A DNA stretch of 64,000 bases, from positions 2,406,857 to 2,470,856 of the forward strand of contig NZ_CP126625.1 in NCBI RefSeq assembly GCF_030219325.1, read 5' to 3'. A program made the position numbers and the translations under genes. This document shows, piece after piece, positions 5,298 to 52,267 of this stretch; positions within the stretch are counted from its first letter, which is position 1; every line of letters begins with the position of its first letter. The notes beneath the pieces are model-generated. The model was given only the letters and a program-made list of their open reading frames with translations. It did not search any database and had not been told where the DNA came from. This DNA is from Geothrix sp. (lineage in GTDB: Bacteria; Acidobacteriota; Holophagae; Holophagales; Holophagaceae).

Positions 5298-5798
5298 ATG
5301 GCAAGCACTGAAGCCAGTTCCCAAGGTCTCCAGCAGGTGCTCTGCTTCGCCCTCGCCGGCGAGGCGTACGCCCTGCCCATCCTGAAGGTCCGGGAAATCC
5401 AGGCCCAGGCCACCATCACCCGGATCCCCAAGGCCCCGCCCTACATGCCCGGGGTGATCAACCTTCGGGGCGCCATCGTCCCCATCCTGGAGCTGCGGCA
5501 CCGGTTCTCCCTGGGGGATGCCCCGGAGGACACCCGGCCCGTCATCGTCATCGTGGAGGTCCAGGGGCGCACCCTGGGCATCCGCGTGGACTCGGTGTCC
5601 GACGTGCTGGATCTGGATCCCAATGCCATCCGGCCCGCGCCGGAGCTGGGCACCCAGAGCGCCCTGGGCCGCGAGTTCATCGCGGGCCTGGCCAGCCTGC
5701 CGGGAGCCACGGGCGCCGAATCCATGCTGATCCTCCTCGACCTGGACCGCCTGCTCTCCGATGGCGAGCTGATGGCCCTGGAAAGCGCCACGGTCTGA
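5298..5798 (+). CDS. cheW: Chemotaxis coupling protein CheW
   Basis: 166-residue protein covering a single CheW domain: it opens with the typical FALAGEAYALPILKVREI strand pair, then the GVINLRGAIVPILELR segment that is diagnostic of the family. The role is to bridge receptor tips and the CheA P5 domain in the signalling array at the membrane. The ATG at 5298 has a GGAG six bases upstream. It sits 91 bases after the MCP gene; a small GC hairpin (5208-5221) follows the MCP stop but has no T-run, so readthrough from the MCP promoter is expected. Confidence 0.93.
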   Translation: MASTEASSQGLQQVLCFALAGEAYALPILKVREIQAQATITRIPKAPPYMPGVINLRGAIVPILELRHRFSLGDAPEDTRPVIVIVEVQGRTLGIRVDSVSDVLDLDPNAIRPAPELGTQSALGREFIAGLASLPGATGAESMLILLDLDRLLSDGELMALESATV

Positions 5799-5802
5799 AG
5801 CC

Positions 5803-6105
5803 ATGGCACGGAAAGCGGCCCCTTCCAGCCCAAGGCTCTCCTTCGAGGGCGACCTGGACATCTTCAGCATCCATCAGCAGTGGGAGAAGGCCCTGCCCCT
5901 GCTCACCACCGGGAACGGCAGTGCGGAGGTGGATCTGTCCTCCGTCGGAGACCTGGACCTGTCCGGGCTCCAGCTGCTTGGCGCCATGGACCGGGATCTC
6001 CGGGCCAAGGGGCTCTCGTTTTCGGTGGTGGGCGCCAGGGAGGAGTGGCAGGCCCGCTTCGCCGCCCTGGGCATGGCCCACCTCTTCGACGGGGCCCATC
6101 CATGA
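5803..6105 (+). CDS. STAS-domain protein (anti-sigma factor antagonist-like)
   Basis: 100-residue single STAS domain. The pattern LSFEGDLDIFSI, then VDLSSVGDLDLSGLQLL, matches the family, and Ser54 in the DLSGLQ loop occupies the position that is phosphorylated in SpoIIAA/RsbV-type antagonists. It lies five bases after cheW and its stop overlaps the next start (ATGA), so it is co-translated within the chemotaxis operon. Its partner is not obvious: candidates are a stand-alone anti-sigma kinase elsewhere or the response regulator-HATPase protein at 40407-41318. STAS genes inside che operons occur in other bacteria with non-classical chemosensory systems, but their role is poorly settled. Confidence 0.85.
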   Translation: MARKAAPSSPRLSFEGDLDIFSIHQQWEKALPLLTTGNGSAEVDLSSVGDLDLSGLQLLGAMDRDLRAKGLSFSVVGAREEWQARFAALGMAHLFDGAHP

Positions 6106-44330: not shown

Positions 44331-46909
<2,579 letters not shown>

Positions 46910-48439: not shown

Positions 48440-48470
48440 CTGCGCGAATCCGCATGGCGGATTCGCGCAG
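48440..48470. repeat. 14-base perfect hairpin after lepB
   Basis: Arms CTGCGCGAATCCGC (48440-48453) and its exact complement (48457-48470) around a three-base ATG loop. No T-run follows on either strand, so it is not a standard terminator; it might be a REP-like or mRNA-stabilising element between lepB and the nuclease gene. Confidence 0.8.
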
Positions 48471-48516
48471 TGAACCACCTTTCGTGGGGTTCCTCCCCAG
48501 GTCGAGGCAAGTCCCC

Positions 48517-49347
48517 ATGAGAATTCTGTCGCTGCTGATCCTGCTCGTCACCTCCCCCCTCTGGTCCTGGGGCGACAAGGGCCACCGGACCGTCTCGACC
48601 CTCGCCATCCGATCGCTGCCTGAGGGCCCCCGGGCCTGGTTCCAGGGACGCGAGGCGGAGGTCTGCGACCACGCCTCGGACCCCGACCACTGGCGGCAGG
48701 ATCGCAAGGAGGGGCCGCGCCACTTCATGGACCTGGAACCCTACGGCGGACCGGACCAGCTGCCCCGCACGCTGGAGGAGGCCCAGGCCAAGCTCGGCGG
48801 CGACTTCTACCGCCGCGGCGTGGTGCCCTGGATCATCCAGGACCGCTGGCGCGACCTGGTGGATGCCTTCCGGGCCGGTGATCCCGCCCGCGTCACCTTC
48901 GCCACCGCCATCCTCGGCCACTACATCGGCGACGCCCACGTGCCCCTGCACACCACCGACAACCACGACGGCCAGCTCAGCAACCAGCGGGGCGTCCACA
49001 GCCGCTGGGAGAGCGGCCTGGTGGAGCGGCACATCACGGCCGAGGACCTGGCGGTGCCACCCGCCCAGCCCGACAAGGCCTTCTTCGTCCGCCCCTGGGA
49101 CTGGCTCAGGGCCTCCCACGCGCTCATTCCGCAGCTGCTGGAGGACGACCGCGACGCCGACCGCACCACCCCCCTGAGCGGCCGCGGCAAGGCCCGCACC
49201 GCCGCCTACTGGATGATCTTCTGGTCCAAGCAGGGCCCCGTCGTGAAACAGCAGCTCCAGCTCGCCGGCCAGCACCTCGGCGACGCCATCCTCAACGCGT
49301 GGATCGCCGCGGGGAAGCCGGCTCCGCCAGCACCGTCGGGAAAGTGA
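48517..49347 (+). CDS. Secreted S1/P1-type nuclease
   Basis: 276 residues. Signal peptide ends at about SPLWS, so the mature protein begins with Trp-Gly-Asp-Lys-Gly-His; the N-terminal Trp and nearby His are part of the trinuclear zinc site in S1/P1 nucleases. Further ligands are seen in VCDHASDPDHWR and ILGHYIGDAHVPLH, and the GRGKARTAAYW region is also family-like. It degrades single-stranded nucleic acids outside the cytoplasm. ATG 48517 is chosen because it begins the signal peptide. Confidence 0.87.
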   Translation: MRILSLLILLVTSPLWSWGDKGHRTVSTLAIRSLPEGPRAWFQGREAEVCDHASDPDHWRQDRKEGPRHFMDLEPYGGPDQLPRTLEEAQAKLGGDFYRRGVVPWIIQDRWRDLVDAFRAGDPARVTFATAILGHYIGDAHVPLHTTDNHDGQLSNQRGVHSRWESGLVERHITAEDLAVPPAQPDKAFFVRPWDWLRASHALIPQLLEDDRDADRTTPLSGRGKARTAAYWMIFWSKQGPVVKQQLQLAGQHLGDAILNAWIAAGKPAPPAPSGK

Positions 49348-49722
49348 TCCGGCAACCAGAACCCGCAGTCACCGGGGCAGGATCCAGACGCCCTACCCGC
49401 ACTGCCTGACCCATGGGGTTTTGACCTTCGTGGCCGTCCTACCGGGGATGGATCACGAAGCGGGCCGCAGGCCTGGGCCAAAACCAACCCACTCCGGGAT
49501 AAGGTGCTCATTCCGCTGCGGCTTGAATGCGCCCCATCAAGTGGGCGAGTCAGCTGGTGGGTCCATGTCGACCCAGGCCCAAAGATGACCCTCGGCCTAA
49601 ATATATGAATAATATTTAGTTAACGAACAAACAAGCTGGCATGGCAGATGCTGATCAAAGGATCACGAAATTCATTATTTGCCGTTTTTTTCAATATCCA
49701 TCAACCACCACAGAGGGTGACC
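49348..49722. other. AT-rich leader region upstream of the phosphoesterase pair
   Basis: 375 bases without a credible gene. The first 240 bases have ordinary composition; about 49590-49710 are very AT-rich compared with the rest of the window. It contains an 8-base dyad CTAAATAT (49597-49604)/ATATTTAG (49612-49619) and a sigma54-like element at 49637-49652. GAGGGTGACC forms the ribosome site before ATG 49723. The composition step suggests a strong promoter zone or a junction of acquired DNA. Confidence 0.6.
49637..49652 (+). promoter_or_regulatory. Sigma54 (-24/-12) promoter-like element
   Basis: TGGCATG, four bases, ATGCT, against the consensus TGGCACG-N4-TTGCA. The invariant GG and GC are ten bases apart as required. 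It would give a transcript starting about 60 bases before ATG 49723. One mismatch in the -12 part keeps this a candidate only. Confidence 0.35.
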
Positions 49723-50163
49723 ATGGCGTGCACATCCCCGCGTGATCCTGCCCACGAGGTCGTCCGGGCTGAGCTTGAAGCCCATCTGCTCGCATCGCTT
49801 CGCTCCCGGGGAAGCTCAGATCTGGTGCCAGCCCACCTGGCCGCTCTCGACGATGCCGATCTGGCGACAACCTCGGCCCGCCTGGTCCGCCTGCGTCAGG
49901 CCTGTGGTTGCTCGGAGGGAGCGGCCTGCCTGCTCGCGGCGCTGCTCCTCGGATCCCTGCTCGCCGTCCGCCGTGGCGCCACGAGCCTTGGTGAAGGAAT
50001 CGCCTTGGGCGCGACGGTCCTGGGCTGGAGCCTCGTCGCGGCCGCCGTCGGCAAGGTGGCGGGCATCCTCGTGTCGAGAGTCCAGTGGCACCTCGAACGG
50101 GGCCGGTTGTTCCGCCGTCTCGCTGGCGCTCCAGAGGGAGGCGGACATGTCGTTCTGCGGTGA
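49723..50163 (+). CDS. Small membrane protein preceding phosphoesterase
   Basis: 146 residues. An N-terminal helical part (about 1-60, acidic and Leu-rich, with ArgLeuArg-type heptads) is followed by two hydrophobic segments at about 67-85 and 95-120 and a basic C-terminus. No family recognised. ATG 49723 has GAGGGTG upstream; a longer in-frame start at 49648 lacks a ribosome site. It overlaps the phosphoesterase gene by 17 bases, so the two are translated as a pair and may act together in the membrane. Confidence 0.65.
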   Translation: MACTSPRDPAHEVVRAELEAHLLASLRSRGSSDLVPAHLAALDDADLATTSARLVRLRQACGCSEGAACLLAALLLGSLLAVRRGATSLGEGIALGATVLGWSLVAAAVGKVAGILVSRVQWHLERGRLFRRLAGAPEGGGHVVLR

Positions 50164-52267
50164 GCTTCGCTACAGCATCATCCGCACCCGGGACGAGTGG
50201 CGCTCGTGGCTGGTCTCGAAGTGCACGACGTGGGCCGACGAGGGCTCGAAGAACTGCTCGGATTGGAGGGACGAGGGGTCGCGGAAATGCGCGCAGTGGG
50301 CCGATGAAGGCTCGAACCAGTGTTGCGACTGGGCTCCGTGCAGCTGGTTCTGTGACGCGTTCTACTGGCTGGCGAAGTGGGTGTGCATCGGCTTCTATTG
50401 GGTGGCGAACTGGGTCTGCCAGGCGTGGTACTGGTTGGCGAAGTGGGTGTGCCGGGCCTTCGCCTGGGTCGTCTACTGGGTCCTGACCATCGTGGCCTAC
50501 ATTGTGTGGGTCGTGCTGTGGATCCCGTGCCACGTGTTCGGCGGACCGCTCGGACCCGGCGGGCCGGTCAAGCACATCTTCGTCCTCGTCCTCGAGAACC
50601 GGTCCTTCGATCACATGCTGGGCATCTCGACCGCCCGCCCGGACGTCGAGGTCGGCTGGACCCTCGGAGTGGGCATCGACGCCGTCACGGGCCTGGTGAC
50701 GACGGTCAATGGACCGTCCTCGCTGGAAACCAACATCCACAATGGCCAGACCTTCTGGATCCAGGCCGGGGCGCCATTCTGGCTTCCGGTGGATCCCCCC
50801 CACGAATTCTGCGACGTCCAGCTCCAGCTGGCCTCCACGACCATCCAGGGCAAGCCGAACGACGACAAGTGCGACTACTCGGGGGTGTACCCGAGTCCGC
50901 TCACCCTGGCGGGGTTCGTGGACAACTACGCCAACCAGGCGAACGCCGAGACCGACACCACGTTGAAGGCCGCCGCGCTGGCGGATCTGGGCACGGTGAT
51001 GGCCTGCTTCACCGCCGACCAGGTGCCGGTCATCAGCACCCTGGCCCGCGACTTCGCCCTCTGCGATTCCTGGTTCTCCGCGCTCCCGGGGCCGACGTGG
51101 CCCAACCGGTTCTTCCTCCACGCCGCCACCTCCGGCGGGCTGGATCGAAGCCCCAGCACGGCGGAGATCGCCATCTCCCAGCTCGATGGCTACCAGTTCG
51201 AGAACGGCACCATCTACGATGCGCTCGACAGCAAGGAGTACGACTGGCGCGTCTACCACGGCGATGCCTTCCCGCAGGTTGCAGCCCTGGCCGGCATGGA
51301 TCTCGCGACCATGGCGACCAACTACCACGGCCTTGACGACCTCGCCGAGGATCTCCAGGACAGCGACTTCAGCGCCGCCTACGTGTTCATCGAGCCAGAC
51401 TACGGCCACGTGTTCACGCACCATGCCAACTTCCAGTGCGGCAACAGCCAGCACCCGCTCGACGATGTCACCCGCGGCGATGCCCTGATCAAGTACGTGT
51501 ACGAATCCATCCGCCGGTCCCCCCACTGGGCCTCAAGCCTGCTCGTCGTGACCTATGACGAACACGGTGGTTTCTATGACCATGTCCCACCACCGGCGGC
51601 CATCCCCCCGGGCGACATCATCGACCCCGACAACAACGGGCACGGCTTCCGTTTCGATCATCAAGGCGTCCGGGTGCCCACCCTCGTGGTCTCGCCCCTC
51701 ATCCCGTCCGTGCAGGCGAACGGCGTCGGCGACCAGAACTGCAACCTCATCGATCACACCCAGTACGATCACGGCTCCCTGCTGGCCACCATCGAACAGA
51801 TCTACGGGCTCTCACCGCTCACCCATCGCGACGCGACGGCCAGGGAGTTCTCCCACCTCCTGTCCCTCCCGGCACCCCGCTCAGATGCCCCCTGGACGCT
51901 GCCGGAAGCCGCGAAGTCGGGATTCAACTGTGCCGACGATGCCAGCAACCCGCCCAGCGGACCCACGGGGCCCCTGGCTGAGCCCGTCAATCCGGACGAG
52001 TCGCATCCCATCGGGCCGAGCCTGCGCGGCTTCGTCGAACTCGCGGGCATCATCGATGCGCGGCTCCATCCCACCGACAAGGCCCAGATCGCCCGCCGGG
52101 TCCAGGAGCTGACCACCCAGGCCGACGCCCACACCTATCTGACGCGGGTGCACACCCAGCTGCAGACCCACCACCAGAGAATCCGCGCCACTGGAATCTC
52201 CCCCAAGGCCACGAGAAGCCGCCGTCGGAATCGCCGCGACGCCGCCCTCAAGGCCAAGCGCGACTAG
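50147..52267 (+). CDS. Phospholipase C/acid phosphatase-type phosphoesterase with hendecad Trp/Cys repeat N-terminus
   Basis: 706 residues. Residues about 141-600 belong to the phosphoesterase family of bacterial phospholipase C and AcpA: VKHIFVLVLENRSFDHMLG with the nucleophile region, and TYDEHGGFYDHV, HTQYDHGSLL as metal-ligand blocks. The N-terminus is unusual: 11-residue repeats in which Cys recurs at 26, 37, 48, 59 and Trp at 29, 40, 51, 62 with DEGS between. A hydrophobic set follows, with Trp at 74, 85, 96, 107 and at 78, 89, 100, 111, and Cys at 80, 91, 102. A hydrophobic stretch to about 130 looks like a membrane anchor. There is no normal signal peptide. The C-terminus is basic. 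Confidence 0.85.
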   Translation: MSFCGELRYSIIRTRDEWRSWLVSKCTTWADEGSKNCSDWRDEGSRKCAQWADEGSNQCCDWAPCSWFCDAFYWLAKWVCIGFYWVANWVCQAWYWLAKWVCRAFAWVVYWVLTIVAYIVWVVLWIPCHVFGGPLGPGGPVKHIFVLVLENRSFDHMLGISTARPDVEVGWTLGVGIDAVTGLVTTVNGPSSLETNIHNGQTFWIQAGAPFWLPVDPPHEFCDVQLQLASTTIQGKPNDDKCDYSGVYPSPLTLAGFVDNYANQANAETDTTLKAAALADLGTVMACFTADQVPVISTLARDFALCDSWFSALPGPTWPNRFFLHAATSGGLDRSPSTAEIAISQLDGYQFENGTIYDALDSKEYDWRVYHGDAFPQVAALAGMDLATMATNYHGLDDLAEDLQDSDFSAAYVFIEPDYGHVFTHHANFQCGNSQHPLDDVTRGDALIKYVYESIRRSPHWASSLLVVTYDEHGGFYDHVPPPAAIPPGDIIDPDNNGHGFRFDHQGVRVPTLVVSPLIPSVQANGVGDQNCNLIDHTQYDHGSLLATIEQIYGLSPLTHRDATAREFSHLLSLPAPRSDAPWTLPEAAKSGFNCADDASNPPSGPTGPLAEPVNPDESHPIGPSLRGFVELAGIIDARLHPTDKAQIARRVQELTTQADAHTYLTRVHTQLQTHHQRIRATGISPKATRSRRRNRRDAALKAKRD
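50222..50479 (+). repeat. 33-base (11-codon) coding repeats, Trp/Cys-rich
   Basis: Codons 26-111 of the phosphoesterase gene. The first block has four Cys/Trp positions at 33-base spacing with DEGS in the first three units; the second block has about four units on the plan aromatic-x-Trp-x-x-x-Trp-Val-Cys. A one-residue phase shift separates the two blocks near residue 62-74. Confidence 0.85.

What the first reader, a model, noticed from the sequence alone, without database searches (positions are those of the whole stretch)
50147..52267. Phosphoesterase with an 11-residue Trp/Cys repeat module at its N-terminus
Seen: Cys and Trp recur with exact 11-residue spacing over residues 26-111, first with acidic DEGS cores and then in a hydrophobic WxxxWVC form, followed by a membrane-like stretch and a standard phospholipase C/AcpA-type catalytic domain. 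Known: 11-residue (hendecad) periods occur in right-handed coiled coils. Inference: the module may oligomerise and embed or anchor the enzyme at a membrane, possibly with thiol chemistry, replacing a signal peptide. I know of no described function for such a module.
Basis: partly seen in the sequence, partly recalled or inferred. Interest (0 to 1): 0.8.

Follow-up and report, generated by a model that had tools for sequence, protein, structure and literature searches.

The report
Mirror-armed cysteine-ladder hairpin with membrane partner
A rare bacterial protein module, found at the front of a lipid-cutting enzyme and on three other kinds of protein, appears to fold like a zip whose two arms always have the same number of cysteine 'teeth', and in every complete case but one it is encoded right beside a small membrane protein, which suggests an undescribed way of attaching or delivering enzymes at membranes.

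Summary
ORF 50147-52267 starts with C/W repeats of exactly 11 residues (0 of 20,000 shuffles reach the score). It precedes an ordinary PF04185 phospholipase C-type domain.

The module is a mobile domain with no match in Pfam, NCBIfam, PHROGs or PDB sequences. It occurs in scattered Acidobacteriota, Pseudomonadota, Bacteroidota and Streptomyces, on four cargos: PF04185 phosphoesterase, kelch/GlxA-like protein, a large unknown protein and, C-terminally, a HExxH protein.

The main finding: the number of 11-residue Cys steps in the acidic arm equals the number in the Trp-rich hydrophobic arm (3:3, 4:4, 5:5, 6:6). Arms gain and lose whole 11-residue units in pairs. In the window protein both Cys of one rung are missing. 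AlphaFold gives two long antiparallel helices turning at the predicted centre. This is an intramolecular hairpin with facing Cys rungs, not simply an oligomerising coil.

Every N-terminal copy lies just downstream of a small two-TM protein with invariant C-G-C and K. Three loci lie in Tc-toxin operons.

Best reading: a thiol-stapled membrane-docking hairpin with a dedicated membrane partner. The fold is well supported; disulfides, membrane docking and partner chemistry are inferred.

The parts
49723..50163 (+). Partner gene, 146 aa (in-frame ATG also at 49648): N-terminal helical part, C-G-C (residues 61-63, nt 49903-49911), two TM-like helices, Lys111; overlaps the module gene by 17 nt
   Evidence: Homologue directly upstream of every N-terminal module gene checked; invariant C61 G62 C63 K111 in 15 sequences; AF2 helices 63-84 and 89-133, pLDDT 82
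50147..52267 (+). Module-phosphoesterase fusion, 706 aa
50150..50332 (+). Acidic arm, residues 2-62: units C-x-x-W-A-D-E-G-S-x-x; Cys 4, 26, 37, 48, 59
   Evidence: AF2 helix 2-62
50321..50353 (+). Hinge CCDWAPCSWFC, residues 59-69; innermost rung C59/C69 and loop pair C60/C65
   Evidence: Cys pattern 1-5-4 kept in the CCxWxPC class; AF2 turn at residues 63-66, predicted hairpin centre 64
50345..50539 (+). Hydrophobic Trp-rich arm, residues 67-131: units C-x-A-[WF]-Y-W-V-A-[KN]-W-V; Cys 69, 80, 91, 102, 128; most TM-like part about residues 103-128
   Evidence: AF2 helix 67-131
50567..51811 (+). Phosphoesterase (phospholipase C/acid phosphatase) domain, residues 141-555
   Evidence: PF04185 E 3.5e-62; non-specific PLC NPC4 chain 8hav E 4e-50; VIA Z 18.5 to 8hav
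51812..52264 (+). C-terminal helical extension of the phosphoesterase, residues 556-706
   Evidence: Shared with leaderless homologues to about residue 683; part of A4

Best explanation
Residues 1-131 form a mobile, cargo-independent antiparallel alpha-hairpin. Arm 1 is an acidic hendecad helix with core a/d/h = Cys/Trp/Gly. A Cys-Pro hinge follows. Arm 2 is a Trp-rich hydrophobic hendecad helix with core a/d/h = Cys/aromatic/Ala. Antiparallel pairing puts Cys opposite Cys (a-a') and Trp opposite Gly or Ala (d-h'), giving a ladder of up to seven Cys rungs. I propose that the rungs act as staples (disulfides in an oxidising compartment, reversible thiols otherwise) which hold the acidic helix over the hydrophobic one. 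The hairpin then docks leaderless enzymes at a membrane with help from the upstream two-TM CGC partner, which binds the hairpin and may form or exchange its rung bonds. SHOWN: the repeats, arm parity, paired indels, cargo swapping and partner synteny. MODEL-SUPPORTED: helices and hairpin. INFERRED: disulfides, membrane docking, partner contact and thiol exchange. My estimates: hairpin 0.85; functional Cys rungs (disulfide or metal) 0.65; membrane docking or delivery 0.55; partner contact 0.6; CGC thiol exchange 0.25.
For: Arm parity: 6:6 (L013, L014, L015, L018), 5:5 (L016/17, L019/21, L036), 4:4 (L020, L022), 3:3 (L037). Rung sums are constant, with offsets of 1 (L022), 3 (L036 end rung) and 4 (window end rung). 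Random re-pairing gives P = 8e-5, ignoring relatedness. Kelch proteins L015 and L002 differ by one exactly 11-residue indel in each arm. In the window type both Cys of rung 15/113 are absent. AF2 gives helix 2-62, turn 63-66, helix 67-131; model residues 1-132 superpose on paired long TM helices of ABC exporters, 114 aligned, 4.4 A. Core letters Cys/Trp/Gly versus Cys/aromatic/Ala over 101 units. Partner adjacent upstream in all 13 module genomes, absent from three module-less Geothrix searched. Four cargos. dN/dS about 0.06 for the module, window versus L012.
Against: AF2 confidence for the module is only moderate (pLDDT 58-71, 10-sequence alignment), no coordinates were available to measure Cys-Cys distances, and oligomers could not be predicted. 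With no signal peptide, it is unknown whether the Cys ever meet an oxidising compartment. Basic linkers after arm 2 in several PLC members could keep the enzyme cytoplasmic. The C-terminal copy (L036) has no adjacent partner. Arm parity counts related sequences, so the P value is only indicative. No experiment exists.
Confidence: 0.5

Rival explanations
1. Parallel hendecad coiled coil that oligomerises the enzyme and anchors it in the membrane.
For: 11-residue period and a/d/h core pattern as in hendecads (hendecad definition in PMC9858780).
Against: Does not predict equal arm lengths, paired 11-residue indels or paired Cys absence across the hinge. A conserved Pro/Cys hinge breaks the helix. 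Hairpins could still oligomerise secondarily.
Confidence: 0.12
2. Metal ladder: facing Cys pairs bind Cu(I) or similar ions, as in helical copper storage proteins, and the module is a metal sink or metal feeder.
For: Two facing thiols per rung on helices; one cargo is related to the copper enzyme GlxA (NCBIfam E 6.5e-7; PDB secreted-protein hits 5lqi/4unm).
Against: The other cargos are not copper enzymes; no Cys-x-x-x-Cys or His/Met pattern; no copper genes noticed nearby.
Confidence: 0.13
3. Release/export tag: the two-TM partner is a holin-like export factor, and the hairpin addresses leaderless toxins or enzymes for release, in some species together with Tc toxins.
For: Tc operon neighbours in L013, L016, L017; 3 of 15 partners match Phage_holin_3_6 weakly, best E 4e-4; non-specific endonuclease beside L037 and S1/P1 nuclease near the window gene; Tc toxins are released by lysis in Yersinia entomophaga (PMC10847048).
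Against: Most N-terminal module loci show no Tc genes in the flanks read; no endolysin or spanin seen; the holin match covers few members and is compositional in kind.
Confidence: 0.2
4. Ordinary low-constraint repeat expansion in a membrane anchor, with no special function.
For: 33-bp DNA tandem repeat in the window; repeat number varies.
Against: Strong purifying selection (dN/dS about 0.06); conservation across phyla and cargos; parity law; fixed partner synteny.
Confidence: 0.05

Closest known systems
CHCH / twin CX9C proteins (CHCHD4/MIA40 substrates; CX9C-CX10C members COA6, COX6B)
   Same: Helical fold with evenly spaced Cys in each arm forming structural disulfides (PMC7909247; the antiparallel arrangement from own knowledge); handled by a CPC-motif protein (PMC12114033), compare the partner's CGC
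   Different: Two rungs and short soluble helices in eukaryotic mitochondria, versus 4-7 repeated CX10C rungs, one Trp-rich hydrophobic arm, fusion to enzymes and a two-TM partner in bacteria; no sequence match; an analogy, not homology
Hendecad coiled coils (e.g. FilP/Scy)
   Same: 11-residue period, hydrophobic a/d/h core with a small residue at one core position (PMC9858780)
   Different: Cys at a in both arms, Trp/Gly against aromatic/Ala layers, antiparallel within one chain, hydrophobic outer face
PF04185 phosphoesterases: non-specific PLC NPC4, AcpA, leaderless rhizobial 'alkaline phosphatase family' proteins
   Same: Catalytic domain and motifs ENRSFDH, TWPNR, DEHGGFYDH
   Different: N-terminal hairpin module and partner gene
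Bacterial helical copper storage proteins (Csp)
   Same: Cys lining helix interfaces (own knowledge; review PMC7558416 found, not read)
   Different: One Cys per 11 residues per helix, Trp-rich outer face, enzyme fusion

Membership tests
PF04185 phosphoesterase (PLC/AcpA) | Pfam model above gathering score and catalytic motifs | tested here: met
   211 bits against cut-off 23; ENRSFDH, TWPNR, DEHGGFYDH motifs kept in 10 homologues; Z 18.5 to 8hav, 239 aligned, rmsd 4.0
Hendecad coiled coil | 11-residue period with apolar a, d, h | tested here: met
   0 of 20,000 shuffles; a = Cys 101/101 (Cys defines the register), d = Trp 41/51 and Trp/Phe/Tyr 46/50, h = Gly 36/51 and Ala 32/50
Hendecad coiled coil | Knobs-to-knobs packing in a structure | not testable with these tools
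   No coordinates and no multimer prediction
CHCH / twin CX9C | Sequence homology to a known CHCH profile | tested here: not met
   No Pfam match for the module; PDB profile search gave only one E 0.71 hit, a terpene synthase
CHCH / twin CX9C | Antiparallel helix pair with Cys facing Cys | tested here: inconclusive
   Parity and model agree; bonds not measured
Sec/Tat-exported PLC | N-terminal signal peptide | tested here: not met
   Residues 1-60 hydrophilic, hydrophobicity begins about residue 61; no dedicated signal-peptide predictor was available
Phage_holin_3_6 (partner) | Pfam model | tested here: inconclusive
   3 of 15 members match, best E 4e-4; the window partner has no match
Tc toxin component | TcA/TcB/SpvB domains in the module protein or beside it | tested here: not met
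   Module protein has none. Tc genes lie beside it only in L013, L016 and L017 (L017 by sequence likeness to L016), not seen in the window
Anti-phage defence proteins | PADLOC model | tested here: not met
   No hits

The most novel reading that the evidence does not exclude
A previously undescribed two-gene membrane system: a mirror-armed Cys-ladder hairpin that is zipped and unzipped by thiol chemistry through a CGC membrane partner, letting interchangeable leaderless enzymes (phospholipase, oxidase-like, protease-like) dock on or cross membranes. It would be a bacterial, many-rung counterpart in principle of the MIA40/CX9C pair.
Probability: 0.25. Interest if true: 0.92.

Novelty: categorically new. 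Interest (0 to 1): 0.78.

Why it matters
It is a protein module with an unusually explicit evolutionary rule: two arms that gain and lose 11-residue units together. That rule reads out a fold from sequence alone. It travels between phyla and between unrelated enzymes, almost always with the same small membrane protein. If the hairpin, thiol and partner model holds, it is a new way to bring signal-peptide-free enzymes, including Tc-toxin-linked ones, to membranes, and a natural adjustable-length disulfide zip for protein engineering.

Tried and rejected
Misplaced start: rejected. Known domain for residues 1-135: none in Pfam, NCBIfam or PHROGs, and only one chance-level hit (E 0.71) to PDB sequences by profile. 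Phage or plasmid carriage: no module in the phage or plasmid collections or viral contigs. Dense occurrence in a clade: surveys of Alphaproteobacteria, Streptomyces, Chitinophagaceae, Caulobacteraceae, Bacteroidota, Gammaproteobacteria and Actinomycetota found one new member besides the seeds; only 12-19 candidates per genome were scored, so some may be missed. Partner scan of viral contigs: alignment too divergent. Partner fold search: nothing below E 3. PDB 9qef_E 'co-purified transmembrane protein' matches the partner at E 0.22 but without the CGC region: not used. Weak module hits L005-L008 and L010 are chance. Literature: 'WADEGS' in no paper; no description of such a module found.

Full report
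WHAT WAS CHECKED. The ORF at 50147-52267 encodes 706 aa. Cys and Trp recur at lag 11: 16 C/W identities in residues 21-111, against a shuffle mean of 5.7 (maximum over lags 5-19) and 0 of 20,000 shuffles as high. Residues 141-555 are a PF04185 phosphoesterase (E 3.5e-62), closest in the PDB to non-specific phospholipase C NPC4 (8hav; VIA Z 18.5, 239 aligned, rmsd 4.0). Residues 1-135 match nothing in Pfam, NCBIfam or PHROGs; a PDB profile search gives only one E 0.71 hit.

THE MODULE IS A MOBILE DOMAIN. The window's own genome has a second copy (48% identity) at the N-terminus of an unrelated kelch protein with a weak GlxA-like match. A scan of about 85,000 species genomes with conserved peptides found 12 loci: Geothrix/Holophagaceae, several Pseudomonadota (including Acetobacteraceae, Caulobacter, Burkholderiaceae), Chitinophagaceae and Streptomyces hiroshimensis. 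Profile searches added a C-terminal copy on a HExxH protein with its own TM helix (L036) and an N-terminal copy on a large protein of unknown family (L037). Surveys of relatives show it is very sparse, a pattern that suggests horizontal transfer. Window and L012 (a Proteobacteria MAG) are 79% identical over the whole protein. Within the module dN is 0.087 and dS 1.40, so it is under strong purifying selection.

THE ARM-PARITY RULE. A conserved Pro/Cys hinge divides the module (two classes: CCxWxPCSWxC and CHWYxPWNC, the latter CHWYTFWNC in L020). Counting 11-residue Cys steps before and after it gives 6:6 for L013, L014, L015 and L018; 5:5 for L016/17, L019/21 and L036; 4:4 for L020 and L022; 3:3 for L037. 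For each protein the sum of the positions of facing Cys is constant, apart from offsets of 1 in L022 and of 3-4 in the outermost rung of L036 and the window. Under random re-pairing of arms the chance is 8e-5; this ignores relatedness and is only indicative. Direct evidence of paired change: between kelch proteins L015 and L002 the alignment has one 11-residue gap in each arm. In the window and L012, residues 15 and 113, a predicted rung, both lack Cys, while the next rung is kept as C4/C128. Aligned by Cys, the arms have core letters a/d/h = Cys/Trp/Gly and Cys/aromatic/Ala. In the antiparallel register set by the Cys, large Trp faces small Gly or Ala. This is what an intramolecular antiparallel hendecad hairpin predicts and what a parallel oligomer does not.

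STRUCTURE. AlphaFold2 on a 10-sequence alignment gives helix 2-62, turn 63-66 and helix 67-131. The predicted centre from the Cys sums is 64. Confidence over the module is moderate (pLDDT 58-71); the catalytic domain is poorly modelled because the alignment is shallow. Several VIA rows align model residues 1-132 with adjacent long TM helices of ABC exporters (for example 8t4h_B, 114 aligned, rmsd 4.4), which indicates that the model packs as an antiparallel pair. Such Z values are common for long helices, so no fold kinship is claimed.

THE PARTNER. In every N-terminal module locus examined, a small protein (about 80-170 aa) is encoded directly upstream, mostly within 40 nt or overlapping (17 nt in the window; 201 nt away in L017). 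The family is divergent (18-39% identity to the window copy) but has invariant C-G-C before TM helix 1 and Lys near the end of TM helix 2. The model has an N-terminal helical part and two long helices (mean pLDDT 82). Profile search finds it in all 13 module genomes and not in three module-less Geothrix genomes. It goes with the module whatever the cargo, so it probably serves the module rather than the enzyme. It has no clear known relative: weak holin-family matches in 3 of 15 members, and a weak PDB match outside the CGC region. The C-terminal copy L036 has no adjacent partner.

CARGO AND CONTEXT. The closest module-less catalytic homologues, on rhizobial and Paraburkholderia plasmids, start about four residues before the catalytic domain, so this phosphoesterase branch is leaderless even without the module. 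The module is therefore an addition and not a substitute for a lost signal peptide. In L013 and L016 the module gene sits with genes for Tc-toxin components (TcA TcB-binding domain, SpvB/TcdB); L017 has the same type of neighbour by sequence likeness. A non-specific endonuclease lies beside L037 and an S1/P1-type nuclease 0.4 kb upstream of the window pair. The window itself has no Tc genes in the flanks read.

MECHANISM. I commit to a thiol-stapled amphipathic hairpin: the acidic helix is held against the Trp-rich helix by Cys rungs, and the unit docks leaderless enzymes at a membrane with the two-TM partner. Hairpin and cargo-independence are well supported. Bond chemistry, membrane docking and partner contact are inferred. 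CHCH proteins work in a comparable way (paired CX9C helices with structural disulfides, PMC7909247; handled by the CPC motif of CHCHD4, PMC12114033), but there is no homology. The main rivals are a release tag linked to Tc or holin-like systems (0.2), a Cu(I) ladder (0.13) and a plain oligomerising coil (0.12).

VERDICT. The module with its partner matches no known family in the libraries searched; function is untested.

Noticed in passing
L013; L016/L062-L063; L017: Module-phosphoesterase genes lie in operons with Tc-toxin genes (TcA with TcB-binding domain, TcB with SpvB/TcdB regions; L017 by likeness to L016). They could be additional Tc-linked enzymes.
   Followed up: partly
L036 (G106:C50), L039 (19 kb around it): C-terminal version of the hairpin module (5:5) on a HExxH protein of no Pfam family, with its own TM helix before the module and a roughly 30-aa peptide containing CxxC encoded just downstream.
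   Followed up: partly
L059:5958-8222; L060:1653-5362: Chitinophagaceae genomes with the module also carry a partner-like two-TM protein without CGC near a conserved roughly 460-aa protein (PIPCCPTLIKDDHCDVF...) of no Pfam family; possibly a sister system.
   Followed up: partly
L012:5134-5514 and 5616-6017: Two divergent partner-type genes in tandem upstream of one module gene.
   Followed up: no
window 48454-49347: S1/P1 nuclease or zinc-dependent PLC-like gene (PF02265 E 6e-11) 0.4 kb upstream of the partner, same strand.
   Followed up: no
window 46532-46805: GC-rich tandem repeat, 24/48/96-bp periods (PRPEG-like coding repeat).
   Followed up: no
PLC members L013, L014, L016, L018, L020, L022: One extra Cys lies exactly 8 residues after the last rung Cys of the hydrophobic arm in all these proteins and has no rung partner; a candidate for bonding to the partner or the catalytic domain.
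   Followed up: no
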